Source: Mycobacterium colombiense CECT 3035 | GTDB taxonomy: Bacteria; Actinomycetota; Actinomycetes; Mycobacteriales; Mycobacteriaceae | Direction: 5' to 3' | Length of the DNA stretch: 64,000 nt | Assembly: GCF_002105755.1 (NCBI RefSeq) | Contig: NZ_CP020821.1 | Coordinates: forward strand, 4,278,001 to 4,342,000 | Part shown: positions 41,133 to 56,330 of the stretch, piece after piece | How the letters are laid out: every line of letters begins with the position of its first letter | How positions within the stretch are numbered: position 1 is the stretch's first letter | Translations under genes and position numbers: made by a program | Notes under the pieces: model-generated | Databases searched by the model: none | The model's input: only the letters and a program-made list of their open reading frames with translations | Told to the model about the DNA's origin: nothing

Positions 41133-42473
41133 ATGCTGCGCAGCCTGGCGAGCCTGGTCGGATCGAGCCACGTCGTCACCGACCCCGACGTGCTGGCGGC
41201 GCGCAGCGTCGACCACACCGGCCGGTACCGGGGCACGGCGAGCGCGCTGGTGCGGCCGGGCACGGCCGAAGAGGTCGCCGAGGTGTTGCGGGTGTGCCGC
41301 GATGCCGGCGCGCACGTGACGGTGCAGGGCGGCCGGACCTCGCTGGTGGCCGGTACCGTCCCCGAGCACGAGGACGTGTTGTTGTCCACCGAGCGGCTGC
41401 ACGACGTGGCTGACGTCGACACGGTCGAACGCCGGATCCAGGCCGGCGCCGGAGCCACCCTGGCCGCGGTGCAACGGGCCGCCGCCGCAGCGGGTTTGGT
41501 GTTCGGCGTGGACCTGGCGGCCCGCGACACCGCGACCGTGGGCGGCATGGCGTCGACGAACGCCGGCGGGCTGCGCACGGTCCGCTACGGCAACATGGGC
41601 GAGCAGGTGGTCGGCGTGCAGGTGGCGCTGCCCGACGGCACGCTGCTGCGCCGGCACAGCCGGGTGCGCCGGGACAACACCGGCTACGACCTGCCGGCGC
41701 TGTTCGTGGGCGCCGAGGGCACGCTGGGCGTCATCACCGAGCTGGACCTGCGGCTGCACGCCACCCCGTCGCATCGGGTGACGGCGATCTGCGGCTTCGC
41801 GGACCTGGAGGCGCTTGTCGAGGCGGGCCGCACCTTCCGCGACGTCGACGGCATCGCCGCCCTGGAGTTGATCGACGGCCGGGCCGCCGCGCTGACAGCC
41901 GAGCATCGCGGCGTCGGCGCCCCGGTGGCCGGCGAGTGGCTGCTGCTGGTGGAACTGGCCGCCGACCACGACCAGACCGAGCGGCTCGCCGAGCTGCTCG
42001 ACGACGTGCCGATGCGCGCCGATCCCGCGGTCGGCGTGGATCTTGCTGCGCAGCAACGACTATGGGAGGTCCGCGAATCGCTGGCGGACGTGCTCGGCGT
42101 GTACGGCCCGCCGCTGAAGTTCGACGTCTCGCTGCCACTGGCGGCGATCAGCGAATTCGAAAGCCACGCAGTCGATTTGGTGCACACGCATGCGCCCGAC
42201 GCGCTGCCGGTGCTGTTCGGTCACATCGGCGAGGGCAACCTGCACCTGAACGTGTTGCGCTGCCCGGCCGACCGCGAGCGGGCGCTGTACGAGCCGATGA
42301 TGGACCTCATCGCGCGATCCGGCGGCAACGTCAGCTCCGAACACGGCGTCGGCAGCCGCAAACGGCCGTACCTGGGGATGTCCCGCGAGGCCGCCGACAT
42401 CGCCGCGATGCGCACGGTCAAGGCCGCGCTGGACCCGACGGGTTATCTCAACGCCGCCGTGCTGTTCGACTAG
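41133..42473 (+). CDS. FAD-binding oxidoreductase, D-2-hydroxyacid dehydrogenase type (Rv0161-like)
   Basis: Vanillyl-alcohol-oxidase-type flavoprotein of 446 residues (Rv0161 has 449). The FAD_binding_4 domain includes VQGGRTSLVAG and GGMASTNAGGLRTVRYGNMGEQV; the C-terminal FAD-oxidase_C domain carries HIGEGNLHLNV and SSEHGVGSRKR, typical of D-lactate or glycolate dehydrogenases. It probably oxidises a 2-hydroxy acid. ATG 41133 gives the tuberculosis length. Its stop overlaps the convergent TetR stop by four bases and marks the left edge of the accessory island. Confidence 0.93.
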   Translation: MLRSLASLVGSSHVVTDPDVLAARSVDHTGRYRGTASALVRPGTAEEVAEVLRVCRDAGAHVTVQGGRTSLVAGTVPEHEDVLLSTERLHDVADVDTVERRIQAGAGATLAAVQRAAAAAGLVFGVDLAARDTATVGGMASTNAGGLRTVRYGNMGEQVVGVQVALPDGTLLRRHSRVRRDNTGYDLPALFVGAEGTLGVITELDLRLHATPSHRVTAICGFADLEALVEAGRTFRDVDGIAALELIDGRAAALTAEHRGVGAPVAGEWLLLVELAADHDQTERLAELLDDVPMRADPAVGVDLAAQQRLWEVRESLADVLGVYGPPLKFDVSLPLAAISEFESHAVDLVHTHAPDALPVLFGHIGEGNLHLNVLRCPADRERALYEPMMDLIARSGGNVSSEHGVGSRKRPYLGMSREAADIAAMRTVKAALDPTGYLNAAVLFD

Positions 42474-43015
42474 CTGCCCTTGATCCCGACGGCGTGGCGC
42501 AGCTGCGCCAAAAACTGATCGGCGTCATCGCTTCGCACGATGTAGTGCGATATCGCAATCCGGATGACAGTCGCCGCCTTGACCGCCGCGTTGGGGCCGG
42601 GCAGGTGGCGCTGCAGTCCCTCGCGCATCTGCGGGATGACCCAGGAGAACTGGGCGATGGTGTGCTCCGGCTCGACGTCGACCATGCGCACACCGGAGTA
42701 CGAATGCTGGTACTCGACGATGAACCGCAGCACCGCGTCGAGCTTGTCCACACCCTTTAAGCCCGCGGTGGCCTTCACCAGACCGCTTTCGAAGATCTGG
42801 CGCTCGTAGCTCGAAAAGGCCGACAGCAGCTCCTCTTTCGACGCGAACCAGCGGTACAGGGTCGGACGGGAGACGCCCGCCTGGGTGGCGACGTCGGACA
42901 GGCTGAGCTTGGTCTTGCCGTTGCGGCCGAGCACCTCGGCGGTGGCCGCCAGGATGCGCTGACGCGTCGAGGTGTCGGTGTCGGCGATCGTCGTCGCCCG
43001 GGCCGGCTGGCTCAT
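42470..43015 (-). CDS. TetR family regulator of the accessory island
   Basis: TetR repressor of 181 residues. The helix-turn-helix is at about residues 20-65 (SLSDVATQAGVSRPTLYRWF), followed by a helical ligand domain. It is the last gene of the minus-strand unit SMP-30, thioesterase, TetR (gap 37 bases). That unit begins with motif A at 44750, so it is probably autoregulated and is the best candidate for control of the three motif-bearing units. ATG at 43015. The effector is unknown, though CoA thioesters are plausible given the neighbours. Confidence 0.9.
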   Translation of the reverse strand: MSQPARATTIADTDTSTRQRILAATAEVLGRNGKTKLSLSDVATQAGVSRPTLYRWFASKEELLSAFSSYERQIFESGLVKATAGLKGVDKLDAVLRFIVEYQHSYSGVRMVDVEPEHTIAQFSWVIPQMREGLQRHLPGPNAAVKAATVIRIAISHYIVRSDDADQFLAQLRHAVGIKGS

Positions 43016-43052
43016 GGTTCTCGCCGAGGTGTCATGGTCATTCGCTCCCACG

Positions 43053-43886
43053 TTAGGCCCGAGGCGGGCGCCGGCGCACCAGCACCGACTGCTGGATGGC
43101 GCCGACCGCGCCCTGCTCGTCGAACAACGTGCCGATCGTCGTCCCGATGCCGTCCGGCCCGTAGCTGGTCTCCGCCCGAATGCCGATCCAGTCGCCGTCG
43201 GGAACACGAAATACATGCACGGCCAGATCGGTGTTGAGGAACGTCCATTTGGTGATGTCGAGCTTGCTGCCGATGCCGTTGGCGCAGTCGGCCACCGCGA
43301 ACAGCCGCTCCAGCTGCGTCATCGATTCGCCGTTGACCAGGTCGACCGTCGGGTTGATCCACGATTCGCCGGGCCCTTCGCTCAGCGGCTCGGTCAGCCA
43401 CAGCCACTGCAGGCTGTGCACGTAGTTGCGGTCCCAGTCCCGCGCCTTCAGGTTGCGGTCGAAGGCCTCGGCCCGGGGCCGGGGCAGCGGCGCGGCGGCG
43501 TGGGCCAGCGGCTGCGTGTCCTGGTGCTGCAACCGCCATCCGCTGGCGCGCGCGACCGGGCGCGGTGTGCCGTCGGGCCCGGGGGCGAGCATCTCGGCGC
43601 CGAGCAGTTCGATCTGCTTGCCGGGGCGTTGCACCTGCGCGCGCACCCACAGGTCGCCCTCGGCCGGCACCCCGCCCAGCAGGTCGATGACGACGCGGGA
43701 CAGGCGCGTGTCGTCGCGCTGCTCGCACCGCTCCAGCGCGCGGACCAGCAGCGCCGACACCGGACCGCCGTGCTGGATGGCCGCCGACCAGGTGCCGCGC
43801 GCCAGGTCGGTCGCCCGGAACTTCTCGCTCAATCCGGCGTCGTCGTCACCGGCCGGGTCGATCAGCTCGTAATAGGCGTCGGTCAT
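43053..43886 (-). CDS. thioesterase family protein, acyl-CoA type
   Basis: Double hot-dog acyl-CoA thioesterase-like protein of 277 residues. The N-terminal hot-dog has AIQHGGPVSALLVRALE near residue 38, typical of the mycobacterial TesB-related group; the C-terminal half has DLAVHVFRVPDGDWIGIRAETSYG. It would release CoA from an acyl-CoA, but the substrate is unknown. ATG 43886 is preferred over TTG 43892 because GAGAGG lies six bases before it. It is 15 bases after SMP-30 and 37 before TetR in one operon. Confidence 0.83.
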   Translation of the reverse strand: MTDAYYELIDPAGDDDAGLSEKFRATDLARGTWSAAIQHGGPVSALLVRALERCEQRDDTRLSRVVIDLLGGVPAEGDLWVRAQVQRPGKQIELLGAEMLAPGPDGTPRPVARASGWRLQHQDTQPLAHAAAPLPRPRAEAFDRNLKARDWDRNYVHSLQWLWLTEPLSEGPGESWINPTVDLVNGESMTQLERLFAVADCANGIGSKLDITKWTFLNTDLAVHVFRVPDGDWIGIRAETSYGPDGIGTTIGTLFDEQGAVGAIQQSVLVRRRPPRA

Positions 43887-43901
43887 CGTCAACCTCTCGG
43901 G

Positions 43902-44720
43902 TCAGGGCAGGCCGGCGCCGGGAGTGGTCACCGTGACGGCATCCAGCCGGGAAAGCCGGGTGCCGACCAGGCGCTGAGGATAGGCCTCCGTGCTCGACAA
44001 GAGAAACAGGGTGCGGCGCTGCGGACCGCCGAGCGCGCACGCGATCGCCACGCGGTCGCCCATGTCGATGCGGTCGGTCACGGTGCCGCCCGCCAGGATC
44101 CGCTCGAACTGATGGGCCAGCGTCATCGACGCCCACACCCCACCCCCGGCGTCCAGCGCGATGCCGTCGGGCGGGCCGTCCAGGCCGTCGGCGAAAACCC
44201 GGCGGTCGGACAGGGCGCCGTCGTCGGCGATGGAAAACGCGGTCAGCCGCCGCCCGGTCGATTCGGCGACGATCAGTGTCGTGCGATCCGGGGTGATCGC
44301 CATGCCGTTGGGGAAGTCGAGGTCGTCGGCGACGACCGTCGCACCGTCGTCGGGGTCCAGACGGAGGATGACCCCGCCGTGCAGCGCCTGGCAGCCGATG
44401 TAGGCGCGGCCCGCGTCGTCGATGACCATGTCACCGAGGTTGGCGGGCGCCAGGTCGGCGAGATCGGCGATGGTGACCACGGTTTCGCCGTCATAGCGCA
44501 GCACCTGCCGGTCCTCGGTCGACGCGATCAGCAGCGACCCGTCGGGCCGGAAGCCCAGGCCGGACGGCGAATGACCGGGCAGCGGCAACGTGGTCAGCGA
44601 GCCACCCATGGTCGCGGTGTGGACGGCCTCGCCCAGCATGTCGGAGAACCACAGCAGGCCCTCGAACCAGCGCGGGCCCTCGCCGAAGCAGAATCCGTTG
44701 GCCAGCGGCTCGGGAATCAT
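43902..44720 (-). CDS. SMP-30/gluconolactonase-like protein
   Basis: Six-bladed beta-propeller lactonase-like protein of 272 residues. The metal residues expected for SMP-30 are visible: Glu in FGEGPRW (about 14), Asn in DFPNGMA (about 138) and Asp in PDGIALD (about 188). It could open a lactone, for example one made by the Baeyer-Villiger enzyme of the third unit; that link is inference. ATG 44720 is first in the minus-strand operon and lies 30 bases from motif A. Confidence 0.87.
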   Translation of the reverse strand: MIPEPLANGFCFGEGPRWFEGLLWFSDMLGEAVHTATMGGSLTTLPLPGHSPSGLGFRPDGSLLIASTEDRQVLRYDGETVVTIADLADLAPANLGDMVIDDAGRAYIGCQALHGGVILRLDPDDGATVVADDLDFPNGMAITPDRTTLIVAESTGRRLTAFSIADDGALSDRRVFADGLDGPPDGIALDAGGGVWASMTLAHQFERILAGGTVTDRIDMGDRVAIACALGGPQRRTLFLLSSTEAYPQRLVGTRLSRLDAVTVTTPGAGLP

Positions 44721-44749
44721 CCGTCCCCGCCGTCGGCAAATCGGTCCGC

Positions 44750-44777
44750 TTTACAAAACACCGAAAAAGTGTCATGC
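44750..44777. promoter_or_regulatory. motif A (island regulatory element)
   Basis: TTTACAAA, ten bases, AGTGTCATGC, 29 bases in front of the SMP-30 start codon. The same element is found at 45024 and 51539. The ends form a partial inverted repeat (TTACA facing TGTCA), as expected of an operator. Confidence 0.7.
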
Positions 44778-44793
44778 ACCGCGGGTACCGGTG

Positions 44794-44916
44794 TCAATCT
44801 GCCGATCGGGCGAGCTCCCGCGCCACGGCCTCGTGGTAGGCGTCGATCCCGGCCGGATTGGCCTGGACGAAGAGCTGATCGGGCAGCGGGGCGTGCTTGT
44901 ACGCCTCGATCGTCAT
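44794..44916 (-). CDS. small hypothetical protein (40 codons)
   Basis: A short frame MTIEAYKHAPLPDQLFVQ onward, ending ARELARSAD. The third codon position is strongly G/C-rich, like real genes nearby, which suggests that it is or was coding. No ribosome site is visible and no family is recognised. It lies between motifs A and B in the 368-base gap from 44720 to 45088; apart from the two motifs nothing else is seen in that gap. It may be a remnant. Confidence 0.3.
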   Translation of the reverse strand: MTIEAYKHAPLPDQLFVQANPAGIDAYHEAVARELARSAD

Positions 44917-45023
44917 GGTCCGGGAGAAAAGCGTGACGCCCTGCCCGGGCCTCCAATCGTGTTGCCTCCCTGTGCGTTCCGCCACCCCGTCGATCGCCGG
45001 GGACGCCGTCTTGTTAGCCGAGC

Positions 45024-45051
45024 TTTACAAATCCTACTCAAAGTGTCACGC
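45024..45051. promoter_or_regulatory. motif B (island regulatory element)
   Basis: TTTACAAA, ten bases, AGTGTCACGC, 36 bases in front of the TTG start of the thioesterase gene at 45088. Spacing and both ends match motifs A and C. Read as a promoter it would be TTTACA, 17 bases, CACGCT. Confidence 0.7.
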
Positions 45052-45087
45052 TGAGCGCTGAGCCGCGAGCGCGAGAGGAACAGTGGA

Positions 45088-45978
45088 TTGACGAAGGCGT
45101 CTGAGGAATCCGCGCAGACCGAATGGACCGTGCAGGGCCTGCTGGATCTGTTCGACGTGCAGGCCGACGGGGACGACCGGTTCACCGGCGCGACCGGCAT
45201 CGCGTCGGGCGACGAACGCCAGGTCGTCGAGGGGACCCAGGTGCTCGCGCAGGCGATCGTCGCGGCGGCGAAGCGATTCCCCGACAAGTCGGTGCGCTCG
45301 GCGCACGCCGTGTTCTCCCGGGCCGTGGTGGTCGGCCCGCCGATCGAACTCGTCCTCGACGTCGTGTCCGAAGGCCGGTCCACCGCCACGGCGGTGGTCG
45401 CCGTGCACCAGAACGGCCGGCGCTGCTTGAGCATCACCGTGCTGGCCGACGTCCCGACCGACGACGTCATCCGGCACCACCTGCCGCGCCCCGACGTCGC
45501 CGCCCCGGCCGACGCGAACCACTCGCCGATGCCGATGGTCGGCCGCGAACTGCGCCTCGTCGACGTGGTCGACGTCAACAGCCCCGACGAGGTCGGCCCG
45601 CCGGAGCTCTACGCGTGGCTGCACTACGACCCGATCCCGACCCGCGACGAGCTGGCCAAGGCGCTGCTCGCCTACTTCACCGGCCACCTGGGCATCTCCA
45701 CCACCATGCGGGCGCACGAGGGCATCGGCACCGCCCAGGCGCACCTGACCGTGTCGACCGCACCGATGAGCATCTCGGTGGCCTTCCATGAACCGGTGGA
45801 CTGGACCGGGTGGCTGCTCTACACCCACGAGAGCACCCAGGTCGGCGCGGGCATGTCGTACGTGCGCGGCACCGTGCACGCGGAGGAGGGCGACCTACTG
45901 GCCTCCTTCGCGCAGGAGGCGCTGATTCGCCCGCTGCGCACCAGCGACACCGCGATCGACTCGCGCGCCCGGTTCTAA
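45088..45978 (+). CDS. TesB-like acyl-CoA thioesterase
   Basis: Acyl-CoA thioesterase II-like protein of about 296 residues with two hot-dog domains. VRSAHAVFSRAVVVGPPIELVLDVV marks the first and AMSISVAFHEPVDWTGWLLYTHES-like sequence the second (with SPMPMVGRE between). It would hydrolyse an acyl-CoA to the free acid, or the fold may accept other thioesters. TTG 45088 is the start, since GAGAGGA lies before it and no ATG or GTG is in reach. It heads the second plus-strand unit. Confidence 0.83.
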   Translation: MTKASEESAQTEWTVQGLLDLFDVQADGDDRFTGATGIASGDERQVVEGTQVLAQAIVAAAKRFPDKSVRSAHAVFSRAVVVGPPIELVLDVVSEGRSTATAVVAVHQNGRRCLSITVLADVPTDDVIRHHLPRPDVAAPADANHSPMPMVGRELRLVDVVDVNSPDEVGPPELYAWLHYDPIPTRDELAKALLAYFTGHLGISTTMRAHEGIGTAQAHLTVSTAPMSISVAFHEPVDWTGWLLYTHESTQVGAGMSYVRGTVHAEEGDLLASFAQEALIRPLRTSDTAIDSRARF

Positions 45979-45983
45979 CGGCC

Positions 45984-46904
45984 ATGCGGTTCACCATCAC
46001 CCACCCGATGCACAGTCATCCGTACAACCCGGAGCTGGTGAGCGGGGACGGGATTGGCAAGGTGGCCGCGGCGACCGAGGCGGCCGGGATCCACGGTTTC
46101 GGCTTCACCGACCACCCGGCGCCCTCGCAGCGATGGCTGGATGCCGGCGGGCACGACGCGTTGGACCCCTTCGTGGCCCTGGGTTTCGCGGCGGCCACGA
46201 CGTCCACGCTGCGGCTGATCCCCAACATCGTGGTGCTGCCGTACCGAAACCCGTTCGTGGTGGCCAAGTCCGGCGCCACCCTGGACCTGCTCTCCGGCGG
46301 CCGGTTCACGCTCGCGGTGGGCGTGGGCTACCTCAAGCGCGAGTTCGCGACGCTCGGCGTGAGTTTCGATGAGCGCGCCGAGCTGTTCGAAGAATCGCTT
46401 CAGGTGATCCGGGCCATCTGGACCGGCGACGACATCTCCTTCGAGGGCAAGCATTTCAGCGCGCGCGGCATCACCGCGCATCCGCGGCCTGTCAGCGATC
46501 CGCACCCGCCGATCTGGATCGGCGGCAACACGTCGTCATCGCGGCAGCGGGTGGCCCAGTACGGCGACGGCTGGTGCCCCTTTCCCGCACCCCCGCAACT
46601 GGCCCAGACGGCCGGCACGGCCGTCATCGACTCGGTGGCGAAGCTCGCCGACGGCATCGACGATCTGCGGCGCAGGTGCGATGCGGCGCAACGGGATTGG
46701 TCGGCGATCGACATCACCTTCACCAACTTCGAGGGCGGCAGCCCCGCGAGCGACGACTTCAACGCCGACGCCTACCTCGAGGGGCTGGACAAGCTTGCGA
46801 AGCTGGGCGTGACGTGGGTCAGCATCCACCTGCCCGGCGACAGCATGACGCACGCGCTCGAGACCCTCGACCGGTTCCGCACCCTGGTCGTCGACGCGGC
46901 CTGA
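45984..46904 (+). CDS. LLM class F420-dependent oxidoreductase
   Basis: Luciferase-like flavin/F420-dependent oxidoreductase of 306 residues. The family marks LRLIPNIVVLPYRNPFVVAKSGATLD, LAVGVGYLKREFA and PPIWIGGNTSSSRQRVAQYGDGW are present. In mycobacteria many such proteins use F420 to oxidise or reduce cyclic or unsaturated compounds. ATG at 45984 is six bases after the thioesterase stop. The acyl-CoA dehydrogenase start overlaps its stop, so the three genes are coupled. Confidence 0.9.
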   Translation: MRFTITHPMHSHPYNPELVSGDGIGKVAAATEAAGIHGFGFTDHPAPSQRWLDAGGHDALDPFVALGFAAATTSTLRLIPNIVVLPYRNPFVVAKSGATLDLLSGGRFTLAVGVGYLKREFATLGVSFDERAELFEESLQVIRAIWTGDDISFEGKHFSARGITAHPRPVSDPHPPIWIGGNTSSSRQRVAQYGDGWCPFPAPPQLAQTAGTAVIDSVAKLADGIDDLRRRCDAAQRDWSAIDITFTNFEGGSPASDDFNADAYLEGLDKLAKLGVTWVSIHLPGDSMTHALETLDRFRTLVVDAA

Positions 46905-48094
46905 TGGACTTCTCCCGCGTCGACCTTTCCCCCGAGGATCAGAAATTCCTCGATGAGACCCGGGCCTTCATGGCCGAACACGTCACCGACGAAATCCGTC
47001 GCCGTGACCGGGAGACCGGCGAAAACTTCAGCGAGCCGGTGCATTTGGCGCTGGGTGAAGCGGGTTACCTGACATCGGACTGGTACCAGGAGTCCGAAGG
47101 CGGATTCGACCCGGTGCGACGGCGAATATTTCACCTCGAGATCGGCCGCGCGCACACGCCGTGGTTCCACTGGGGCACCACCGCGGTCGTCGCGCGGCTG
47201 GTGCAGCAATTCGGCAGGGCCGAACTCGCCGACGCGATCCTGCCGGGCGTGCTGTCCGGGGAGATCCGGCTCTGCCTGGGCTATACCGAGCCCGAAGGCG
47301 GCTCCGACGTGGCCACCTGCAAGACCCGGGCCGTGCGGGAGGCGGATGGGTCCAGCTGGATCATCAACGGCTCCAAGATGTTCACCTCGAACGCGCAGAA
47401 CGCCAAGTACGTCTTCCTGCTGACCAACACCGACCCGCAGGGGCGCAAACACAAGAACCTGACCATGTTTCTGGTGCCGCTGGATTCCGACGGCATCGAG
47501 ATCCAGGGCATCCGCACGGTGGACGGCGACCGCACCAACATCGTGTACTACAGCGACGTTCGCGTCGATGACCTCTACCGGATCGGTGAGGTCAACGGCG
47601 GCTGGACGGTGATGCGGTTCGCCCTCGACGCCGAACACGGCATCACCGACGCGCAAGACCATGGCCTGCAGAACATTTCGATGCTGTCGGAGCACGGCCA
47701 CCTGATGGCCGAGGCGGCCGACGGCGTCGCGGCGGTGCTGGGCACGCCCGATGCGTCCGGGCGGAGCCCGATCGACGACGACGCCACGAAATACCGGCTC
47801 GGGCGTGCCATGGCGCGCATCGAAGCGGCCATGTCGACCCCCGGGATGTACGGGCGGGTGGCGCTCATTGCGACCATGCGTGAGGTGTCCCAGGAGTTGA
47901 TGGACCTGCTGGGGACGGCATCGGCATTGCCCACGGATACACCGGGTTCCGCGGACTTCGCTGATGATGGCGCCATCGAGTTCATCTTCCGGCACGGCGT
48001 GCCCGCCGGCATCTACGGCGGCACCATGGAGGTGTTCCGCAACATGATCGCCCAGCACGAGCTGGGGCTCGGGCGTCCTAGCTACGGTCGCTGA
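46904..48094 (+). CDS. acyl-CoA dehydrogenase
   Basis: FAD-dependent acyl-CoA dehydrogenase of 396 residues. YTEPEGGSDVATCKTRAV near residue 125 and the SKMFTSNAQNAKYV region form the substrate and FAD site; the C-terminal IYGGTMEVFRNMIAQHELGLGRP is typical. Substrate unknown, but the context of thioesterases and a CoA-transferase suggests a branched or cyclic acyl-CoA. ATG 46904 overlaps the upstream stop (TGATG). The last 17 bases overlap the convergent DUF427 gene. Confidence 0.93.
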   Translation: MDFSRVDLSPEDQKFLDETRAFMAEHVTDEIRRRDRETGENFSEPVHLALGEAGYLTSDWYQESEGGFDPVRRRIFHLEIGRAHTPWFHWGTTAVVARLVQQFGRAELADAILPGVLSGEIRLCLGYTEPEGGSDVATCKTRAVREADGSSWIINGSKMFTSNAQNAKYVFLLTNTDPQGRKHKNLTMFLVPLDSDGIEIQGIRTVDGDRTNIVYYSDVRVDDLYRIGEVNGGWTVMRFALDAEHGITDAQDHGLQNISMLSEHGHLMAEAADGVAAVLGTPDASGRSPIDDDATKYRLGRAMARIEAAMSTPGMYGRVALIATMREVSQELMDLLGTASALPTDTPGSADFADDGAIEFIFRHGVPAGIYGGTMEVFRNMIAQHELGLGRPSYGR

Positions 48095-48764
48095 GCGGCA
48101 GCTCGGCCGTCACCTCGGCTCGGGTGTCGTCGAAGCTCAAAAATCCCCTGATGGGCAGGCTTTCCGGCGGCGGGCCGGGGTAGCTCCACGCGACGTCGGA
48201 GACGACGTCCCCACCCGAGACGAACGACCAGTACGTCGCGAAACCCTTGTAATTGCAGTAACTTTCTGTCTCCGAGCGCCGCAACAGATCGGTGCGCACG
48301 TGTGCCGGATCGACGTAGAGCCGTGGGGCGAGCGCGGTCTCGAACACGATCACCGTGTCGTCGGTGTCCACCAGTGTGGTGCCGGAGACCCGGACGCGCA
48401 GGCGGCGTTGGGTGGGACGGCAATCGACGCGGTGATAGGGGTTGGGCGGGTAGTGCACGAGCCTGCGCCCCTCTTCCAGCCAGGCGTCGACCGCGTCCCA
48501 GGGCACCTGGACATAACCGGGCGCTTCGGGTTCCGGCTCGCTGGGCAGGTCGCCGACCTCGTCGGCCGCGAAGGCGTAGCTCAGCGGCCGGCCGCGCCGG
48601 TGCACCATCAGCGCCCGCTCGGTGTCGATCACCACCCGGCCGTCCTTGACGGCCTGCACGCGGCGGGGATGCGGTTCGACGTAGACGACGCCGTCGGGTA
48701 TCGCGGGCGAGAAGCGCCCCGCGGGATCGCTGCTGAGCGGACCACGCCCGGCCACCAGAGTCAT
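48078..48764 (-). CDS. two-domain DUF427 protein
   Basis: A 228-residue protein with two DUF427 domains: residues about 25-110 (VVYVEPHPRRVQAVKDGRVVID) and about 120-225 (TLVDTDDTVIVFETALAPRLYV, SYCNYKGFATYWSF). Function not established. ATG at 48764 has a strong GGGAGGGA ribosome site; the gene is convergent with the acyl-CoA dehydrogenase and downstream of the HxlR gene by 36 bases. The single-domain relative at 21274 shows that the window has two kinds of the fold. Confidence 0.88.
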   Translation of the reverse strand: MTLVAGRGPLSSDPAGRFSPAIPDGVVYVEPHPRRVQAVKDGRVVIDTERALMVHRRGRPLSYAFAADEVGDLPSEPEPEAPGYVQVPWDAVDAWLEEGRRLVHYPPNPYHRVDCRPTQRRLRVRVSGTTLVDTDDTVIVFETALAPRLYVDPAHVRTDLLRRSETESYCNYKGFATYWSFVSGGDVVSDVAWSYPGPPPESLPIRGFLSFDDTRAEVTAELPLSDRS

Positions 48765-48800
48765 GCGTCCCTCCCGGTTGCTCGCCTTCGCTCTACCCAA

Positions 48801-49289
48801 TCATGTGTGGCGCCGCGATGGGGCGGCGCGTTGGACCCGGATGTCGGCGGACCGCTTTCCCGGTGCGCCGGTGTCGGTGGTCACCCGCACCCCGACGGCC
48901 CGGCCGGTGTCGGCGTCGACGAACGCCAGCTTCGCGGAACCGTCCTGCAGATACGCGTCCCCCCACTGCACCAGCGCCATGAACACCGGCAGGAAGTCCT
49001 CCCCGGCCCCGGTCAGCCGGTACTCATCGCGGGCGCGCTGCCCCGGTTCCTGGTAGGGAACGCGCTCGACGATGCCCGCCGTCTCGAGTTGCTTGAGCGC
49101 CCGCGACACCGCAGGCGCCGACGTCGCGATGCGTTCCACGAAATCCTCGAACCGCGTTGTGCCGAAGAACAATTCGCGGACCACCTGGAAGGCGGTCTTG
49201 GTGCTCAACAGTTCGAGCACCTTCGACATCGAACAGCCATCGCCGATCGACCACTGCCGGCGGTCCTGCAGCCGGTTCTCGAACTCCAT
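48801..49289 (-). CDS. HxlR-type winged-helix regulator
   Basis: HxlR regulator of 162 residues. The winged helix (about 20-100, with FEDFVERIATSAPAVSRALKQLETAGIVERVPYQE) is clear; the C-terminal half is a short extension. Such proteins often respond to reactive aldehydes or quinones and control divergent oxidoreductases. It is divergent from an NmrA-like gene across an 89-base gap holding two matching palindromes. ATG 49289 is preferred to GTG 49292, with GGGGA upstream. Confidence 0.9.
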   Translation of the reverse strand: MEFENRLQDRRQWSIGDGCSMSKVLELLSTKTAFQVVRELFFGTTRFEDFVERIATSAPAVSRALKQLETAGIVERVPYQEPGQRARDEYRLTGAGEDFLPVFMALVQWGDAYLQDGSAKLAFVDADTGRAVGVRVTTDTGAPGKRSADIRVQRAAPSRRHT

Positions 49290-49305
49290 CACGGTCCCCT
49301 TTGGC

Positions 49306-49319
49306 TAACGCTTGCGTTA
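49306..49319. promoter_or_regulatory. HxlR operator 1
   Basis: Perfect palindrome TAACGC-TT-GCGTTA between the HxlR and NmrA-like genes. It shares the TAACG-N4-CGTTA core with operator 2 and lies 16 bases from the HxlR start, so autoregulation is likely. Confidence 0.65.
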
Positions 49320-49343
49320 TCCAGCATATCGTGCTTGTATCTT

Positions 49344-49361
49344 ACTAACGACATCGTTAGT
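49344..49361. promoter_or_regulatory. HxlR operator 2
   Basis: Perfect 18-base palindrome ACTAACGA-CA-TCGTTAGT, 17 bases before the NmrA-like ATG, with the same core as operator 1. The centres are 40 bases apart, close to four helical turns, so two HxlR dimers could bind on one face. Confidence 0.7.
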
Positions 49362-49378
49362 CAGCGAGGAGTCAGAAG

Positions 49379-50290
49379 ATGCCATCGGATCAGCTCTTTC
49401 TCATCACCGGGGCGACCGGCAACACCGGTGCGCCCACCGTCGAGCTGCTGCTCGCCGCCGGGCACCGGGTGCGCGCGTTCGTGCACCGCAGCGATCAGCG
49501 TTCCGCGGCGCTGGCCGGGCTGGGCGCCGAGATCGTCGAGGGTGATCTGCTCGACTTCCACGCGGTCAGCGCCGCGATGACCGGGGTCAGCGCCGCCTAC
49601 TTCTGCTACCCGATCGCCCCGGGCAGCCTGCTGCCTGCCACGGCCATCTTCGCCCAGGCCGCCAGCGAGGCCGGCGTGCGGGCGGTGGTCAACATGTCCC
49701 AAATATCCGCGCGGCGTGAGGCGAAAAGCCATGCCGCGCAACATCACTGGATCGCCGAGCGCCTGCTGGACCGGTTCGCCTTCGGCACCACCCATCTGCG
49801 CCCGACCTTCTTCGCCGAATGGCTCAAATGGCAATGGGCGCGCAGCGGCGACGGAGGCGTGCTGCGGCTGCCGTTCGGCAATGGACGCCACGCTCCCATC
49901 GCCGGGCGCGACCAGGCCGGCGTCATCGCCGCCATCCTGCAGAACCCGGCCCCGCACGATCGGCAGATCTATCCGCTGGTGGGCGCCGAGGAACTCGACC
50001 ACTACCGCATCGCCGAGCAGATGTCGGACGCGCTCGGCATCGCCGTGCGCTACGAGCCGATCGGCATCCCCGTCTTCGCCGCGGCGCTGACCGCGCAGGG
50101 CCGGCCGGACTTCTTCGTCCAGCACATCAGCAGCGTTGCCCAGGACTACCAGGACGGCGTCTTCGCCGGAGAGAACAACCTGGTCGAGGTGATCGGTGGG
50201 CACCGGCCGATGACCGTCGGCGACTACGTCGACGCCAACCGCGCCGCGTTCGACCACGACGGCGCCTTCGCGGCGCGCGTGGCGAGCTGA
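49379..50290 (+). CDS. NmrA-like NAD(P)-binding protein
   Basis: Atypical SDR of 303 residues from the NmrA group: TGATGNTGAPTV near residue 10 binds NAD(P), followed by VVNMSQIS and FGTTHLRPTFFAEW. Members reduce quinones or act as redox sensors. No catalytic YxxxK is obvious. It is a typical partner of a divergent HxlR regulator, and both operators lie in the gap. ATG 49379 follows CGAGGAG. It also precedes the CoA-transferase by 63 bases. Confidence 0.9.
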   Translation: MPSDQLFLITGATGNTGAPTVELLLAAGHRVRAFVHRSDQRSAALAGLGAEIVEGDLLDFHAVSAAMTGVSAAYFCYPIAPGSLLPATAIFAQAASEAGVRAVVNMSQISARREAKSHAAQHHWIAERLLDRFAFGTTHLRPTFFAEWLKWQWARSGDGGVLRLPFGNGRHAPIAGRDQAGVIAAILQNPAPHDRQIYPLVGAEELDHYRIAEQMSDALGIAVRYEPIGIPVFAAALTAQGRPDFFVQHISSVAQDYQDGVFAGENNLVEVIGGHRPMTVGDYVDANRAAFDHDGAFAARVAS

Positions 50291-50337
50291 CGCCGCCCGC
50301 CGAATCGGGGGGATGCGTGCGCCCCGGCGCGCCGACA

Positions 50338-50353
50338 GGGTAGGAACTTACCC
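50338..50353 (+). promoter_or_regulatory. hairpin touching the CoA-transferase start
   Basis: GGGTA-GGAACT-TACCC immediately before the ATG at 50354. The possible ribosome site AGGA lies in and next to the loop. A stem this short is weak, but it could reduce translation of the CoA-transferase. Confidence 0.25.
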
Positions 50354-51523
50354 ATGGCCGGACCGGTAGCAGGCGTCAAGGTCGTCGAACTCGGGGTCTG
50401 GGTGGCCGGACCGGCCGCCGGCGGCATCCTGGCGGACTGGGGCGCCGACGTGATCAAGATCGAACCCCCCACCGGTGATCCGGCGCGCATGTTCGGCCGG
50501 ATGCTGGGCTGCGATCTGGGCCTCAACCCGCCGTTCGAGATGGACAACCGGTCCAAGCGCAGCGTCGTGCTGGACCTGGGCACCGACGAGGGCCGCGGCA
50601 CCGCTTTCGAATTGCTCGCCGCCGCAGACGTTTTCCTGACCAACGTGCGCCCCGGCGCGCTGCGGCGCCTCGGCCTGGACTTCGAGTCGGTGTCGGCCGC
50701 CAACCCACGCCTGGTCTACGGGCTCATCACCGGATACGGCGAAGACGGGCCCGACGCCGACCGTGCCGCCTTCGACGTCGCGGCGTTCTGGTCCCGGGCC
50801 GGGGTGGCCCACCTGCTCACCCGGCCCGGCGACACGCCACCGTTTCAGCGCGGCGGGATGGGCGACCACTCCGCCGGGATGACGATGGCCGCGGCCGTGT
50901 GCGCGGCCCTGCTCGCGCGCGAACGCACCGGGACGGGCCAGCTGGTGAGCACCTCGCTCTACCGGCAGGGCGCCTACACCGTGAGCTTCGACCTGAACAC
51001 CTATCTGATGAGCGGGCAGCCGATCGCGATCGGCCAGCGCGAAACGATGGGCAACCCGTGCATGAACAACTACGCGGCCGCCGACGGGCGGCGGTTCTGG
51101 ATCGTCGGCCTGGAGCCCGAGCGGCACTGGCCGGCGCTGTGCCGGGCGGTGGGCCGGCCCGAATGGCGCGACGACCCCCGGTTCGCCGATGCCCGCGCCC
51201 GTGCCGTCAACTCGACCGCGCTGATCGCCGCCCTGGATGAAATCTTCGCGACGCGGCCGCTCGACGAGTGGGCACAGGTGTTCGCCGGAGAGCCGGATTT
51301 CTTCTGGTCACCCATTAACACCCTGGAGGACGTCGTCGCCGACGAACAGTTCCACGCCGCCGGCGGCATCGTCGACGTCCCCGACGGCGGCGCGGCCGTG
51401 CCGATGGTGGCCACACCCGCGGATTTCCACGGCACCCCGTGGGCGCCGCGTTCTGCGGCACCGGAACTCGGGCAGCACACCGAGGAAGTCCTGGCCGAGC
51501 TCGAGGCGCGCCGCGGGTCCTGA
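50354..51523 (+). CDS. CaiB/BaiF family CoA-transferase
   Basis: Class III CoA-transferase of 389 residues, which moves CoA between acids. KIEPPTGDPAR near residue 35-45 and the catalytic Asp171 in GGMGDHSAGM are present, as is the C-terminal VADEQFHAAGGIVD region. It would activate a free acid made in this island to its CoA ester. ATG 50354 follows NmrA-like by 63 bases and the third motif follows 15 bases after its stop. Substrate unknown. Confidence 0.92.
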   Translation: MAGPVAGVKVVELGVWVAGPAAGGILADWGADVIKIEPPTGDPARMFGRMLGCDLGLNPPFEMDNRSKRSVVLDLGTDEGRGTAFELLAAADVFLTNVRPGALRRLGLDFESVSAANPRLVYGLITGYGEDGPDADRAAFDVAAFWSRAGVAHLLTRPGDTPPFQRGGMGDHSAGMTMAAAVCAALLARERTGTGQLVSTSLYRQGAYTVSFDLNTYLMSGQPIAIGQRETMGNPCMNNYAAADGRRFWIVGLEPERHWPALCRAVGRPEWRDDPRFADARARAVNSTALIAALDEIFATRPLDEWAQVFAGEPDFFWSPINTLEDVVADEQFHAAGGIVDVPDGGAAVPMVATPADFHGTPWAPRSAAPELGQHTEEVLAELEARRGS

Positions 51524-51538
51524 CCGCCCGCCAGGACC

Positions 51539-51566
51539 TTTACAAATTTCGCCGGAAGTGTCACGC
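51539..51566. promoter_or_regulatory. motif C (island regulatory element)
   Basis: TTTACAAA, ten bases, AGTGTCACGC between the CoA-transferase and the nine-gene operon that starts at 51684. Same ends and the same spacing as motifs A and B, with an unrelated ten-base middle. Confidence 0.7.
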
Positions 51567-51683
51567 TGTCCGGTGAGCCGCATCGCCCGACGCGTGACGC
51601 GGCTGCAGCCCCTGAGAAAGCCCATGACAAGCGCTTGAGACCCGCCGGCCGACCGGCGGCGGGTGGTGGTGAGGAATGGATCG

Positions 51684-52247
51684 ATGGTCGCTCCGACGTT
51701 CGACATCAGCAAGACCGGTGCCGCCAAAGCAGCCCACGTGAATGGCGAGGGCCTGCGCTACCGGCTCGACGTCGTCGCGGCCGACGCCGTCGATGTCGTG
51801 CGATCGGCCGGCGGCTGGCTCTACGACCGGGCCATGGCCGGTTGGGAAGTCACCGTGCTGCTGCCGCGCGGCTGCGACACCCGGCCGCTGCGGATCCTGG
51901 GGGTGCGGGCGGCGGAGCTCGGGCCGCAGCTCGCCGGGCTGGGGACTGGCTCTACCAGCCTGGCCGTTAGCGCCGAGGTGTTCACCGCCGACGCCCGGGT
52001 GCGCGACGCGGTGCTCGAGTCGCTGGACAACGGGCTGATCGAGGTCGCGTTATGGGGTGAGGGATGGCCCCTCGGCATCAACCGTGCGACGACCCGGGCG
52101 CAGCACCTGCTCAGCGGCGCCGCCCGCATGTTCAAGGGCTATGCGCTTGCGGCGGCGGGCATTCCGGGCGCGACGGTCGATGCCACCGAGACGCTGCTGT
52201 GCGATGTGGGTTCGGGGGCCGACTCAGAGCTGATCCGGCTCGACTAG
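51684..52247 (+). CDS. unknown protein, first gene of the P450/BVMO operon
   Basis: A 187-residue protein not recognised from any family. The middle has a WLYDRAMAGWEVTVLLPRG segment and a C-terminal stretch ATTRAQHLLSGAARMFKGYALAA that looks helical; no signal peptide, zinc or nucleotide motif is visible. It is three bases upstream of the NIPSNAP-like gene, so it belongs to the same operon, and its place first behind motif C suggests a role in the pathway. ATG 51684 with GAGGAA upstream is preferred to the GTG codons near 51663. Confidence 0.7.
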   Translation: MVAPTFDISKTGAAKAAHVNGEGLRYRLDVVAADAVDVVRSAGGWLYDRAMAGWEVTVLLPRGCDTRPLRILGVRAAELGPQLAGLGTGSTSLAVSAEVFTADARVRDAVLESLDNGLIEVALWGEGWPLGINRATTRAQHLLSGAARMFKGYALAAAGIPGATVDATETLLCDVGSGADSELIRLD

Positions 52248-52250
52248 CCC

Positions 52251-52955
52251 ATGAAGAAATACTTCGGCCACACACTGCTCTACCTGCACGAGACGATCTC
52301 GCTGGGATCCGGGCGAAGCGACCGCTTCACCGAAATCTTCGCCGACACCTACCAGCCGATGATGGAACAACTCGGCGCCCGGCTGTTCGCGATCTGGGAA
52401 TCCACGCCGTACAACGGACACTGGCCACAGGTGACGGTGATCTGGGAGATCGACGGCTTCGCCGACTACGCCAGGATCGGCGCCGCCCAGGCCCGCGGCG
52501 GCAGCCACGAGGCCGCGTCCGGCAAATGGTCGGCGTTCCTCGCCGACATCGGCGCCTCGGGCGAGGGCCGCATCATGTACCCCGGCCCCAGCAACAAGAC
52601 GCTCGCCCAGCTGCGGGAGGCGAATTTCGCTGCGCCGCTGGTGATCCAAGAGATCATGCAGACCAAGCCGGGCCGTCAGGACGACTACATCCGCGAGCTG
52701 GAGCGGCTCTACGTTCCGTGGTCGGAGCGCACCGGCAAGCGCTGGCTGGGTTCGTTCACCACGACTTTCCGCTACAACGAGGTCATCCACTACTGGGCGC
52801 TGGACGGCGGCTGGGACTGCTTCGCCGAACACTATCCGTCCTGGAAAGAGAGCCCACCGGCCGAGATCGTCACGTGGATGAGCGTGGCTCCCGCGCTGCG
52901 CGACGGCTGGGAGGACTCCATCCTGCAGGCCCTCCCGCCATCGCCACTGCAATGA
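52251..52955 (+). CDS. NIPSNAP-like protein
   Basis: A 234-residue protein with two ferredoxin-like alpha/beta repeats of the NIPSNAP/dimeric alpha-beta barrel type: YFGHTLLYLHETISLGSG with a later WPQVTVIWEIDGFADYARI, then VIQEIMQTKPGRQDDYIRELERLYVPW with the NEVIHYWALDGGWDCFAEHY repeat. Such folds often bind lipophilic ligands or act as monooxygenases. ATG 52251 is three bases after the previous stop; its stop overlaps the P450 start (ATGA). Confidence 0.75.
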   Translation: MKKYFGHTLLYLHETISLGSGRSDRFTEIFADTYQPMMEQLGARLFAIWESTPYNGHWPQVTVIWEIDGFADYARIGAAQARGGSHEAASGKWSAFLADIGASGEGRIMYPGPSNKTLAQLREANFAAPLVIQEIMQTKPGRQDDYIRELERLYVPWSERTGKRWLGSFTTTFRYNEVIHYWALDGGWDCFAEHYPSWKESPPAEIVTWMSVAPALRDGWEDSILQALPPSPLQ

Positions 52956-54193
52956 CGGAGCCACCAATCCCCTTGAATATGACCGACTTCCATTACGATC
53001 CGTTCGACGTGGCGGTGATGTCGAACCCGTTGCCCTACTACCGGATCCTGCGCGACCGCCACCCGGTCTACTACATGCCGCAATGGGACACCTTCGCGTT
53101 GTCGCGGTTCGAGGACATCTGGACGGTGCTGGAGGTCAACAACGGCACGTTCGTCGCTTCGGAAGGCACGCTGCCACCGGCATCGGTTCTCGCGCAACAC
53201 AACAGCGGCCCGGTCGACGACCCGCCGCTGCACCCGCTGCCGTTTCACGCCATGTTCGACGCCGACCTGTACGGGGAGATCCGGCGCACCCACTCCCGGC
53301 CGTTTCGGCCACGGTCGGTCACGGACCTGGAGGGCCGGATCCGTGCGCTGGCCAACGAACGCCTCGACGCGCTGCTGCCGGGCGGTTCGTTCGACCTGAC
53401 CCAGGACTACGGCGGCATCGTGGTGGCCGCCATCGTATGCGAATTGTGCGGCATCCCAACCGATCTCGCGCCCCAGGTACTCGCCACGGTCAACGCCGGC
53501 AGCCTCGCGCAGCCCGGCGAAGGCGTGGACACCGGCCAGGCACGGCCCAACTACTTCGAGTACCTGCTGCCCGCGGTCCAGCGTCGGCGCGCCGATCCGT
53601 CCGGGGGACCGCTCGACGTGGTCGACGGCCTGCTCGGCTATCGCCTGCCCGATGGCGGCGCGCTCGACGACATGGAAGTCGCGACCCAGATGCTGTGCAT
53701 CTTCATCGGGGGAACCGAGACGGTGCCCAAGATCGTCGCGCACGGACTCTGGGAGCTCAGCCGGCGGCCCGACCAACTAGCGGCCGTGCGCGCCGACCTG
53801 GACAGCAACGTGCTCGTCGCCCGCGACGAGATGATCCGATTCTGCGCGCCGGCGCAGTGGTTCGCCCGAACGGTGCGCAAGCCCTTCGCGATTCACGGTG
53901 AAACCCTGAATCCGGGCCAGCGCGTCATCACCCTGCTCGCCTCGGCCAACCGCGACGAACGGGAATACCCCGAGCCCGACGAATTCGTCTGGGACCGGCC
54001 GATCCGGCGCTCGCTGGCGTTCGGCCGTGGCCAGCACTTCTGCATCGGCTACCATCTGGCCCGGCTGGAAGTGGCTGTGCTGCTACAGGAATGGCTGCGC
54101 CGGGTGCCCGATTTCGCGATCCAGGGTGACGCCGCCACCCGGCTGCCGTCCAGCTTCCAATGGGGCTGGAACAACATTCCGGTGGAGGTCTGA
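52952..54193 (+). CDS. cytochrome P450
   Basis: P450 monooxygenase of 413 residues, different from CYP138 in this window. The I-helix motif GGTET is at 253-257, ExxR is Glu293-Arg296 and the haem loop FGRGQHFC puts the cysteine ligand at 364. It probably hydroxylates a cyclic or terpenoid-like substrate as the first oxidation of the pathway (inference). ATG 52952 overlaps the NIPSNAP-like stop. No ferredoxin gene lies in the operon, so electrons must come from elsewhere. Confidence 0.95.
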   Translation: MTEPPIPLNMTDFHYDPFDVAVMSNPLPYYRILRDRHPVYYMPQWDTFALSRFEDIWTVLEVNNGTFVASEGTLPPASVLAQHNSGPVDDPPLHPLPFHAMFDADLYGEIRRTHSRPFRPRSVTDLEGRIRALANERLDALLPGGSFDLTQDYGGIVVAAIVCELCGIPTDLAPQVLATVNAGSLAQPGEGVDTGQARPNYFEYLLPAVQRRRADPSGGPLDVVDGLLGYRLPDGGALDDMEVATQMLCIFIGGTETVPKIVAHGLWELSRRPDQLAAVRADLDSNVLVARDEMIRFCAPAQWFARTVRKPFAIHGETLNPGQRVITLLASANRDEREYPEPDEFVWDRPIRRSLAFGRGQHFCIGYHLARLEVAVLLQEWLRRVPDFAIQGDAATRLPSSFQWGWNNIPVEV

Positions 54194-54194
54194 C

Positions 54195-55923: not shown

Positions 55924-56330
55924 CGGGCGACGCCCGCGACGATGAGGCCGCGATCCGCGAACTGCTCGCCGGTTACGCCCTGGCGCTTGACGTCGGCGAC
56001 GCCGACGAGTGCGTGCACCTGTTCGCGCCCGACGGCGAATTCCTGGTCTACGGCAAGACCTTTGCCGGCCATGATGCGATCGCGGGCATGTTCCGCGCCG
56101 CGGCGCGCGGCCTGCACCTGAACGGCAGCGCGCGGATCGAGGTCGTGGGGGAGCGGGCCACCGCCAGATCGCAGGTACTGTTCGTCCGCGCGGGCGACCT
56201 GCAGCTGCGGCCGGCGATCTACGACGACGAACTGACCCGCACCGCCGGGCAGTGGCGGTTTGCGCGGCGCCGCTGCCGCTTCGTCACCAGCGCCGGCCTG
56301 GCCAACAGCCCCGAGGTGAGTCCAACATGA
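55920..56330 (+). CDS. SnoaL/NTF2-like protein
   Basis: A 136-residue NTF2-fold protein of the SnoaL_4 or similar type: EAAIRELLAGYALALDVGDADECVHLFAPDGEF is the N-terminal helix and strand, followed by a short FRAAARGLHLNG helix. Related proteins include dehydratases and hydroxylases of small substrates, but no catalytic pair is certain. ATG 55920 overlaps the aldolase stop (ATGA) and its own stop overlaps the SDR start, so translation is coupled. Confidence 0.85.
   Translation: MTGDARDDEAAIRELLAGYALALDVGDADECVHLFAPDGEFLVYGKTFAGHDAIAGMFRAAARGLHLNGSARIEVVGERATARSQVLFVRAGDLQLRPAIYDDELTRTAGQWRFARRRCRFVTSAGLANSPEVSPT

What the first reader, a model, noticed from the sequence alone, without database searches (positions are those of the whole stretch)
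44750..51566. Shared 28-base element marks three units of the island as one regulon
TTTACAAA, exactly ten bases, then AGTGTCA(C/T)GC occurs at 44750, 45024 and 51539, each in front of a different transcription unit: minus-strand SMP-30/thioesterase/TetR, plus-strand thioesterase/LLM/acyl-CoA dehydrogenase, and the nine-gene P450/Baeyer-Villiger operon. The middle ten bases are unrelated, so this is a constrained bipartite site rather than a recent duplication. The ends form a partial inverted repeat (TTACA facing TGTCA). The TetR at 42470 lies in one of these units and is the obvious candidate. I noticed no further copy in the window.
Basis: partly seen in the sequence, partly recalled or inferred. 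Interest (0 to 1): 0.78.

Follow-up and report, generated by a model that had tools for sequence, protein, structure and literature searches.

The report
Two-way promoter shared by catabolic genes
A 28-base DNA word repeated in front of a mycobacterial gene island is a genus-wide control site that looks like a complete two-way gene switch, probably shut by a nearby TetR-type repressor; it matters because one short palindrome seems to serve as promoter, repressor site and, in many relatives, the very edge of the genes on both sides.

Summary
In detail: three exact copies in the window (none expected by chance), and only one imperfect copy elsewhere in the genome. The element is widely conserved: 153 of 198 genomes of the genus, with 0 hits for the reversed control pattern, and 0 of 220 genomes of other genera of the order. 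The gap is rigid: 140 full matches have 10 bases, 1 has 11, none has 5-9 or 12-16.

The interpretation needs changing. In relatives, start codons pile up at position 36 on one strand and at -9 (less often -8) on the other (repeated on 82 further sites). So the two conserved blocks are most simply the -35 and -10 parts of two interlocked, outward-firing, often leaderless promoters. They form one inverted repeat with 9-base arms (TGTMAMGCT). Binding, transcription start sites and the sigma factor are inferred, not shown. A dedicated sigma factor is the main rival.

The parts
44750..44777 (+). Element copy A (TTTACAAAACACCGAAAAAGTGTCATGC); with outer bases the dyad covers 44747-44778
   Evidence: Position 29 is A, so the forward -10 has lost its last T; 25 of 169 sites have lost it, 16 of them of this SMP-30-facing type (list, my count). 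Inferred use: minus-strand SMP-30/thioesterase/TetR unit.
44747..44752 (-). Predicted minus-strand -10 of copy A (17-bp register); its -35 (ATGACA) at 44770-44775
   Evidence: Inferred by position from the reverse start-codon peaks at -9/-8 in relatives. In the window itself the SMP-30 ATG lies at -29, so it is not leaderless here.
45024..45051 (+). Element copy B (TTTACAAATCCTACTCAAAGTGTCACGC); dyad 45021-45052
   Evidence: aligned with three relatives, one middle base differing in one of them.
45024..45059 (+). Predicted forward promoter of copy B: -35 TTTACA 45024-45029, -10 CACGCT 45047-45052 (preceded by TGT), +1 about 45059; would drive thioesterase/LLM/acyl-CoA dehydrogenase
   Evidence: Inferred from the start-codon peak at position 36 in relatives; in the window the proposed TTG start is at 45088.
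51539..51566 (+). Element copy C (TTTACAAATTTCGCCGGAAGTGTCACGC); dyad 51536-51567
51539..51574 (+). Predicted forward promoter of copy C: -35 51539-51544, -10 CACGCT 51562-51567, +1 about 51574; would drive the nine-gene P450/Baeyer-Villiger unit
   Evidence: Inferred as for copy B; first ATG of the unit about 51684.
42470..43015 (-). TetR-family regulator (181 aa from ATG 43015), the proposed repressor
   Evidence: PF00440 E 3e-13 (on the longer ORF 42470-43216); ortholog searches.
43053..43892 (-). Acyl-CoA thioesterase-like (4HBT_3/4HBT_3C)
43902..44720 (-). SMP-30/gluconolactonase-like protein
   Evidence: PF08450 E 4e-49.
44794..44952 (-). C-terminal remnant of an SRPBCC-like gene between copies A and B; about 313-323 bp including its front part are absent here but present in three relatives
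   Evidence: Alignment A1 and site spacings; a relative's protein matches PF10604 at E 6e-4, below the Pfam cut-off. Limits read by eye from the sequence.
45088..45978 (+). TesB-like thioesterase, first gene of unit B
45810..46904 (+). F420-dependent LLM oxidoreductase (ORF; true start later)
   Evidence: TIGR03619 266.7 bits, cut-off 166.9.
46574..48094 (+). Acyl-CoA dehydrogenase (ORF; true start later, domain begins near residue 117-119)
   Evidence: PF02770/PF02771.
51684..52247 (+). First gene of unit C, no Pfam family
   Evidence: family F11 in 9 loci.
52251..52955 (+). NIPSNAP-like protein
   Evidence: PF07978 26.4 bits, cut-off 22.3.
52904..54193 (+). Cytochrome P450, nearest solved chains CYP130 (true start later in this stretch)
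54027..55163 (+). Zinc-type alcohol dehydrogenase (ORF; true start later)
   Evidence: PF00107, PF08240.
55171..55923 (+). HpcH/HpaI aldolase
   Evidence: PF03328 E 5e-28.
55920..56330 (+). SnoaL-like protein
   Evidence: PF13577.
56252..57055 (+). Short-chain dehydrogenase (ORF)
57037..58548 (+). Type I Baeyer-Villiger monooxygenase-like
   Evidence: Solved relatives: cyclohexanone, steroid and phenylacetone monooxygenases.
58386..59483 (+). HSL-type esterase/lipase (true start later)
   Evidence: PF07859 E 2e-60.

Best explanation
The element is a fused promoter and operator. Its two 9-base arms (left arm read outward TGTAAAGCT, right arm TGTCACGCT; common form TGTMAMGCT) each do two jobs: outward on one strand an arm is an extended -10, and inward on the other strand it holds the -35 (TTTACA or GTGACA) of the opposite promoter. 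With a fixed 14-base gap between the arms, both promoters get a 17-base spacer and fire outward, with start sites about 45 bases apart. In many relatives these fall on the first base of a gene on one side or the other, sometimes on both (leaderless mRNAs). The TetR of the cluster binds the same arms, covers both promoters and its own, and shuts the P450/Baeyer-Villiger/acyl-CoA genes until a pathway ligand (not identified; perhaps an acyl-CoA or alicyclic intermediate) releases it. In the window, copy A serves the minus-strand SMP-30/thioesterase/TetR unit (autoregulation), and copies B and C serve the two plus-strand units. Shown here: copies, conservation, rigid spacing, symmetry, start-codon positions, co-occurrence with TetR. 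Inferred: transcription start sites, sigma factor, TetR binding, repression, ligand.
For: Conservation: 153 of 198 genus genomes, control 0; 0 of 220 genomes of other genera of the order. Rigid gap. Promoter reading, forward: RTG at position 36 in 70 of 169 sites against 5.8 at the average offset; in 31 of 169 it opens the long downstream frame; gene families with such a start include P450, acyl-CoA dehydrogenase, thioesterase, NIPSNAP-like, SnoaL-like, ferredoxin and DUF7064 proteins and the untyped F11. Reverse: RTG at -9 in 34 and at -8 in 14 of 169 against 4.3 on average, in frame 30 and 12, for TetR, SMP-30, aldehyde dehydrogenase, DUF427-like and SRPBCC-like genes (the last two by resemblance). 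Further sites: 24 of 82 at 36 and 22 of 82 at -9, against 3.3 and 2.0 on average. Outer T of each -10: A at -2 (T on the reverse strand) in 82% of sites with a start at -9 against 50% of those with neither -9 nor -8; T29 lost in 25 of 169, 16 of them SMP-30-facing. TetR: a match (E up to 1e-20) in 152 of 153 element-bearing genus genomes, in 150 at clear ortholog level, against 141 of 153 for the SMP-30 protein at E up to 1e-70; both Aldersonia have it, the two unrelated hits do not; in the order scan 27 of 27 element-bearing genomes have it; its start lies within 73 bp of an element (up to 3 mismatches) in 28 of 56 TetR hits. Genome G004 has TetR with one element 4.5 Mb along its contig (1.4 Mb if that is a closed circle) from a second cluster with elements, so TetR would act in trans.
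Against: None of the three window copies is leaderless by position. The forward -10 CACGCT and the reverse AAAGNT lack the first T of the mycobacterial TANNNT. Arm centres 23 bases apart are wide for one TetR dimer (general knowledge). Other peaks exist: RTG at 35 in 29 of 169 (in frame 4) and 22 of 82; at -3 in 21 of 169 (in frame 13, often in the same frame as -9); further out in-frame counts reach 13 at 62 and 15 at -87. In the 82 further sites -8 is not among the top five. At sites with a start at -8, A at -2 is only 43%. Only 38 of the 70 forward RTG are open for 20 codons, so part of that peak is inherited sequence rather than start codons. 12 of 164 TetR-bearing genus genomes have no element at up to 1 mismatch; upstream of TetR only 4 of those 12 score above the background maximum, although a looser count over the whole 3.5-kb loci finds 14-16 of 18 core letters in 5 of 12. 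Directly upstream of the two Aldersonia TetR genes nothing scores above the background maximum (only 224 bases were available for one). G105 has one near-match and no TetR; G103 and G161 match TetR only at 3e-50 and 3e-55, the level of the window genome's own paralog. Sites and genomes are related by descent, so the counts are not independent.
Confidence: 0.67

Rival explanations
1. The two blocks are the -35 and -10 of a dedicated alternative sigma factor (or of a sigma factor plus an activator). TetR sits in the cluster but binds elsewhere.
For: The -10 is not TANNNT; TGTCACGC is nearly invariant, more than a housekeeping -10 would need; M. tuberculosis starts without TANNNT were suggested to use other sigma factors (PMC3898074, passages).
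Against: The symmetry, and the place of the element at TetR's own start codon in many loci, fit an operator. Sigma repertoires of carriers and non-carriers were not compared.
Confidence: 0.17
2. One reading: an operator only, in front of ordinary promoters elsewhere; the start-codon positions just reflect short intergenic gaps.
For: Many sites, the window's three among them, have leaders of about 20-110 bases; part of the RTG peak is inherited sequence.
Against: Sharp peaks on each strand in several unrelated gene families, seen again on 82 further sites; outer T of each -10 kept or lost according to use.
Confidence: 0.1
3. The site is bound by an activator (TetR acting as activator, or an unseen AraC- or LuxR-type protein in trans).
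For: Weak -10 elements often need activators; distal sites without a TetR hit in the fetched stretch exist (L090).
Against: An activator lying over both -35 and -10 would be expected to block polymerase; among the recurrent neighbour families only TetR was recognised as a regulator.
Confidence: 0.05
4. Recent duplication or a mobile repeat.
For: Three copies within 7 kb.
Against: Middle bases and flanks unrelated within the genome; the copies recur in relatives, aligned for A and B.
Confidence: 0.01

Closest known systems
Mycobacterial TetR-controlled catabolic regulons (KstR, KstR2, BkaR)
   Same: TetR-family protein beside lipid/ring catabolic genes, palindromic operators, divergent layout (PMC4482099, abstract and section 11; for PMC3068626, PMC3920632 and PMC1995591 only titles and abstract starts in a listing).
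   Different: None of four motif strings that I searched occurs in the main text of PMC4482099 (its logos are figures, not held); here a wide 14-base gap between arms, and the element is at the same time core promoter of both genes.
Bidirectional promoters of E. coli (e.g. acrA/acrR, with the TetR-family AcrR)
   Same: Pseudo-symmetric DNA firing both ways, one gene being a TetR-family auto-repressor (PMC12825309, introduction and passages).
   Different: There the start sites lie either side of or within a shared -10 and are most often 18, also 10 or 23 bp apart; here each -10 overlaps the other promoter's -35 and the predicted start sites are about 45 bp apart.
Tn10 tetR/tetA control region (recalled, no call)
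   Same: Divergent overlapping promoters shut by TetR on operators between the genes.
   Different: Two separate short operators there; one wide inverted repeat here, reused at many loci.
Leaderless promoters of M. tuberculosis
   Same: Start site on the start codon; purine start preferred (PMC3898074, passages).
   Different: TANNNT -10 and no -35 consensus there; here a fixed -35 block and a CACGCT -10 with TGT before it.

Membership tests
TetR-family regulator (42470-43015) | TetR_N helix-turn-helix domain | tested here: met
   PF00440, 49.7 bits, cut-off 24.
TetR-family regulator (42470-43015) | Member of a named NCBIfam equivalog (KstR, FasR, MftR and so on) | tested here: not met
   17 families matched, all far below their cut-offs, best 37.4 bits of 250.
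Operator of this TetR | Palindromic or near-palindromic site | tested here: met
   Best dyad centre 13.5; arm identity 5-7 of 9 in 161 of 169 sites.
Operator of this TetR | Present at the regulator's own promoter | tested here: met
   28 of 56 TetR hits in fetched loci have an element (up to 3 mismatches; 23 with at most 1) within 73 bp; in the window TetR is third gene behind copy A. Not so for the other 28 hits, some behind other genes of an operon.
Operator of this TetR | Co-occurs with the regulator across genomes | tested here: met
   Of 198: both 152, element only 1, TetR only 12, neither 33 (cross-tabulated by hand); counting only clear orthologs, both 150 and element only 3.
Operator of this TetR | Direct binding and repression | not testable with these tools
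   Needs protein and strains.
Promoter of the principal sigma factor | -35 near TTGACA, spacer 17 | tested here: met
   TTTACA and GTGACA, each 5 of 6; rigid spacing.
Promoter of the principal sigma factor | TANNNT -10 | tested here: not met
   CACGCT forward, AAAGNT reverse in the 17-base register; the second-position A and the last T fit, the first T does not.
Leaderless promoter | Start codon at the transcription start site | tested here: inconclusive
   Position peaks in relatives; not so for the three window copies; no RNA data.
Bidirectional promoter as defined in E. coli | Shared -10 with start sites mostly 10-23 bp apart | tested here: not met
   Predicted distance about 45 bp (positions 36 and -9); -10 overlaps -35 instead.

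The most novel reading that the evidence does not exclude
One 9-base word (TGTMAMGCT) is at once extended -10 outward, -35 inward and protein-binding half-site. Two copies facing each other at a fixed distance therefore make a self-contained, portable, repressible two-way leaderless promoter that most of a genus has set between unrelated gene pairs; and, at the boldest, it is read by its own dedicated sigma factor rather than the principal one.
Probability: 0.15. Interest if true: 0.75.

Novelty: new variant of a known kind. Interest (0 to 1): 0.52.

Why it matters
If right, it shows promoter and operator fused into a single palindrome: the same bases place two polymerases, place the repressor and, in many relatives, set where a neighbouring protein begins. 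Polymerase competition and repression would then be coupled by geometry. It also gives a precise, searchable mark for a P450/Baeyer-Villiger catabolic regulon carried by 153 of 198 genomes searched in the genus, for which my literature searches found no report, with a candidate regulator to test; and it would help correct start-codon calls for many genes at once.

Tried and rejected
Recent duplication or mobile repeat: rejected. Chance: rejected. AraC-type direct repeat: considered from the xTxxCA match 19 bases apart, set aside because an inverted repeat centred at 13.5 scores clearly best among dyad centres (direct repeats were not scored). ECF-type sigma sites recalled from memory (TGTCAC as a -35): considered, not tested by a call; start codons 7 bases past the block leave no room for a -10 downstream in those loci. 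TetR's relatives among solved structures: only three weak matches, best Mce3R at 7e-7, not informative. Literature: of the papers holding the motif strings (3, 1) none looked relevant in the listings and none was opened; no hit for bidirectional promoter + leaderless + mycobacter + divergent or for divergent promoters + leaderless + operator + TetR family; two looser searches gave nothing on this regulon in the rows listed (9 of 10; 10 of 74). No structure prediction, homologous-protein search or RNA-family search was run. Comparing sigma-factor repertoires was left undone.

Rows dropped: from the 169 sites, those nearer than 60 (left) or 120 (right) bases to a locus end (not counted), two identical copies, and 10 sites with 3 mismatches. 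In one search, 50 repeats of earlier sites and 2 near an end were dropped, and the two loci of unrelated bacteria were left out beforehand. Outputs were cut in the middle; their summary counts were printed in full, but I saw only part of the rows.


Full report
OBSERVATION. In the 5.58-Mb genome one more copy exists at up to 2 mismatches, at G000:C1:4415380-4415407. It lies beside an AMP-binding (acyl-CoA-synthetase-type) gene. A closely similar sequence is found in 5 of 13 related genomes searched; whether it sits at the same place was not checked.

CONSERVATION. Up to 2 mismatches: 20 of 41 genomes, the 20 all within the 25 of the same genus (own genome included), none of 16 others; the reversed control gave 1 hit. 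A refined pattern with up to 1 mismatch: 153 of 198 genus genomes, control 0. Across the order: 27 of 249, all in the genus (29 genomes), 0 of 220 outside. The spacing is fixed: in 1.23 Mb (fetched loci L033-L093 and the window together), 140 full matches have a gap of 10, one of 11, none of 5-9 or 12-16.

SHAPE. From 169 unique sites at up to 2 mismatches in 62 stretches (L033-L093 and the window), the consensus is C-TTTACARA-N9-A-ARTGTCACGC-T, positions 0 to 29. Position 29 is T in 85% and position 0 is C in 96%. Read outward, the left arm is TGTAAAG(C)T and the right arm TGTCACGCT. The dyad centre is 13.5.

WHY A PROMOTER. An RTG triplet starts at position 36 in 70 of 169 sites; the average of other offsets (35 left out, which has 29) is 5.8. 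In 31 of 169 it is an in-frame start of the long downstream frame; other offsets reach 4 at 35, 7 at 37, 8 at 55 and 13 at 62. Proteins that begin there include P450s, acyl-CoA dehydrogenase, SnoaL-like, ferredoxin and DUF7064 proteins typed, and thioesterase, NIPSNAP-like and F11 proteins by resemblance to the window's. On the reverse strand RTG at -9 (34) and -8 (14) stand out against 4.3; -3 has 21, often two codons ahead of -9 in the same frame. In-frame counts are 30, 12 and 13; a later peak of 15 at -87 comes from an inner methionine of SMP-30 (my reading). Proteins there are mostly TetR and SMP-30, also aldehyde dehydrogenase, DUF427-like and SRPBCC-like. Among 82 further sites from named genomes, 24 have RTG at 36 and 22 at 35, and 22 have it at -9, against averages of 3.3 and 2.0. 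That places +1 six bases after CACGCT on one strand and six after AAAGNT on the other, each with a 17-base spacer to TTTACA or GTGACA. 26 of 169 sites have an RTG on both sides. In L043 both frames are open, so TetR and a P450 could start 45 bases apart, though TetR also has an in-frame ATG at -3.

SEPARATING PROMOTER FROM OPERATOR. The last T of each -10 tends to follow use. At sites with a reverse start at -9, position -2 is A in 82% (T on the reverse strand) against 50% where there is no start at -8/-9 (43% in the 14 sites with -8 only). T29 is missing in 25 of 169 sites, and 16 of the 25 are SMP-30-facing copies like copy A (my count). There the core TTTACAAA...AGTGTCAYGC stays, with few changes. 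So the core is kept for something beyond forward transcription, as an operator would be.

WHY TETR. Matches at E up to 1e-20 are in 164 of 198 genus genomes. Cross-tabulated by hand: both 152, element only 1 (G105), TetR only 12, neither 33. Two of the 152 (G103, G161) match only at 3e-50 and 3e-55, no better than the window genome's own paralog (3e-52), so clear orthologs are in 150 of 153. The SMP-30 protein, a control for mere cluster membership at the cut-off 1e-70, is in 141 of 198, all element-bearing; 12 carriers lack it, and 11 of those have a TetR match. In the order scan all 27 carriers have TetR, 2 TetR genomes lack the element and 220 have neither. Both Aldersonia carriers have it at 64-65% identity; the two unrelated hits do not. 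In 28 of 56 TetR hits (49 loci) an element of up to 3 mismatches lies within 73 bases of the aligned start. Against this: of the 12 TetR-only genomes, 4 show an element-like sequence above the background maximum upstream of TetR and 8 do not; three of the 8 share another sequence there, ending CGTAAGGTA. The genome's paralog (52% identity) has no element near it.

THE WINDOW. Copy A faces the minus-strand SMP-30/thioesterase/TetR unit and has lost the forward T. Copies B and C keep full forward promoters. Between A and B three relatives carry more of an SRPBCC-like gene on the minus strand; here about 313-323 bases with its front part are missing and a tail remains. In those relatives copy B could serve both that gene and the thioesterase unit. 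Gene naming. The mix of P450, alcohol dehydrogenase, Baeyer-Villiger monooxygenase, lactonase, esterase, aldolase and acyl-CoA enzymes suggests oxidation of an alicyclic compound through a ketone and lactone to acyl-CoA. This is inference from family names.

LITERATURE. A survey of mycobacterial TetR proteins lists motifs for 30 conserved divergent regulators, as figures that are not held (PMC4482099: outline and abstract, section 11, word search). M. tuberculosis promoters: TANNNT at 73% of primary starts, 26% of genes with a primary start leaderless (PMC3898074, passages). E. coli bidirectional promoters share a -10 with starts most often 18, also 10 or 23 bp apart (PMC12825309, introduction and passages). 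The layout here differs. My searches showed no report of this element in the rows listed; they cover only the held open-licence papers.

Noticed in passing
window 44794-44952 (-): Remnant of an SRPBCC-like gene; about 313-323 bases including its front part are missing here and present in three relatives.
   Followed up: partly
window 44792-44797; same place in the other copy-A-type sites listed: A further TGTCAA(T/C) at element positions 43-48, kept where the forward promoter is lost; reads as TTGACA on the minus strand. Unexplained.
   Followed up: no
G000:C1:4415380-4415407 (-), L033 10381-10408: Fourth, weaker copy about 73 kb outside the window, beside an AMP-binding enzyme gene; a closely similar sequence is in 5 of 13 relatives.
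   Followed up: partly
L212, L213, L214 upstream of TetR: Three TetR-bearing genomes without the element share another sequence upstream of TetR, ending CGTAAGGTA; perhaps a changed operator.
   Followed up: no
window 51573-51638: GTG at position 35 of copy C opens a short frame of 21 codons ahead of the first gene (read by eye); in some relatives a GTG at 35 is in frame with that gene.
   Followed up: no
window 48801-49292 (-): HxlR-type regulator gene inside the island (PF01638) with no copy of the element beside it.
   Followed up: no
L090 8163: Isolated element in front of a SnoaL-like gene, behind a frame that looks by eye like ribosomal protein S16, with no TetR hit in that 20-kb stretch: a distal regulon member.
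   Followed up: partly
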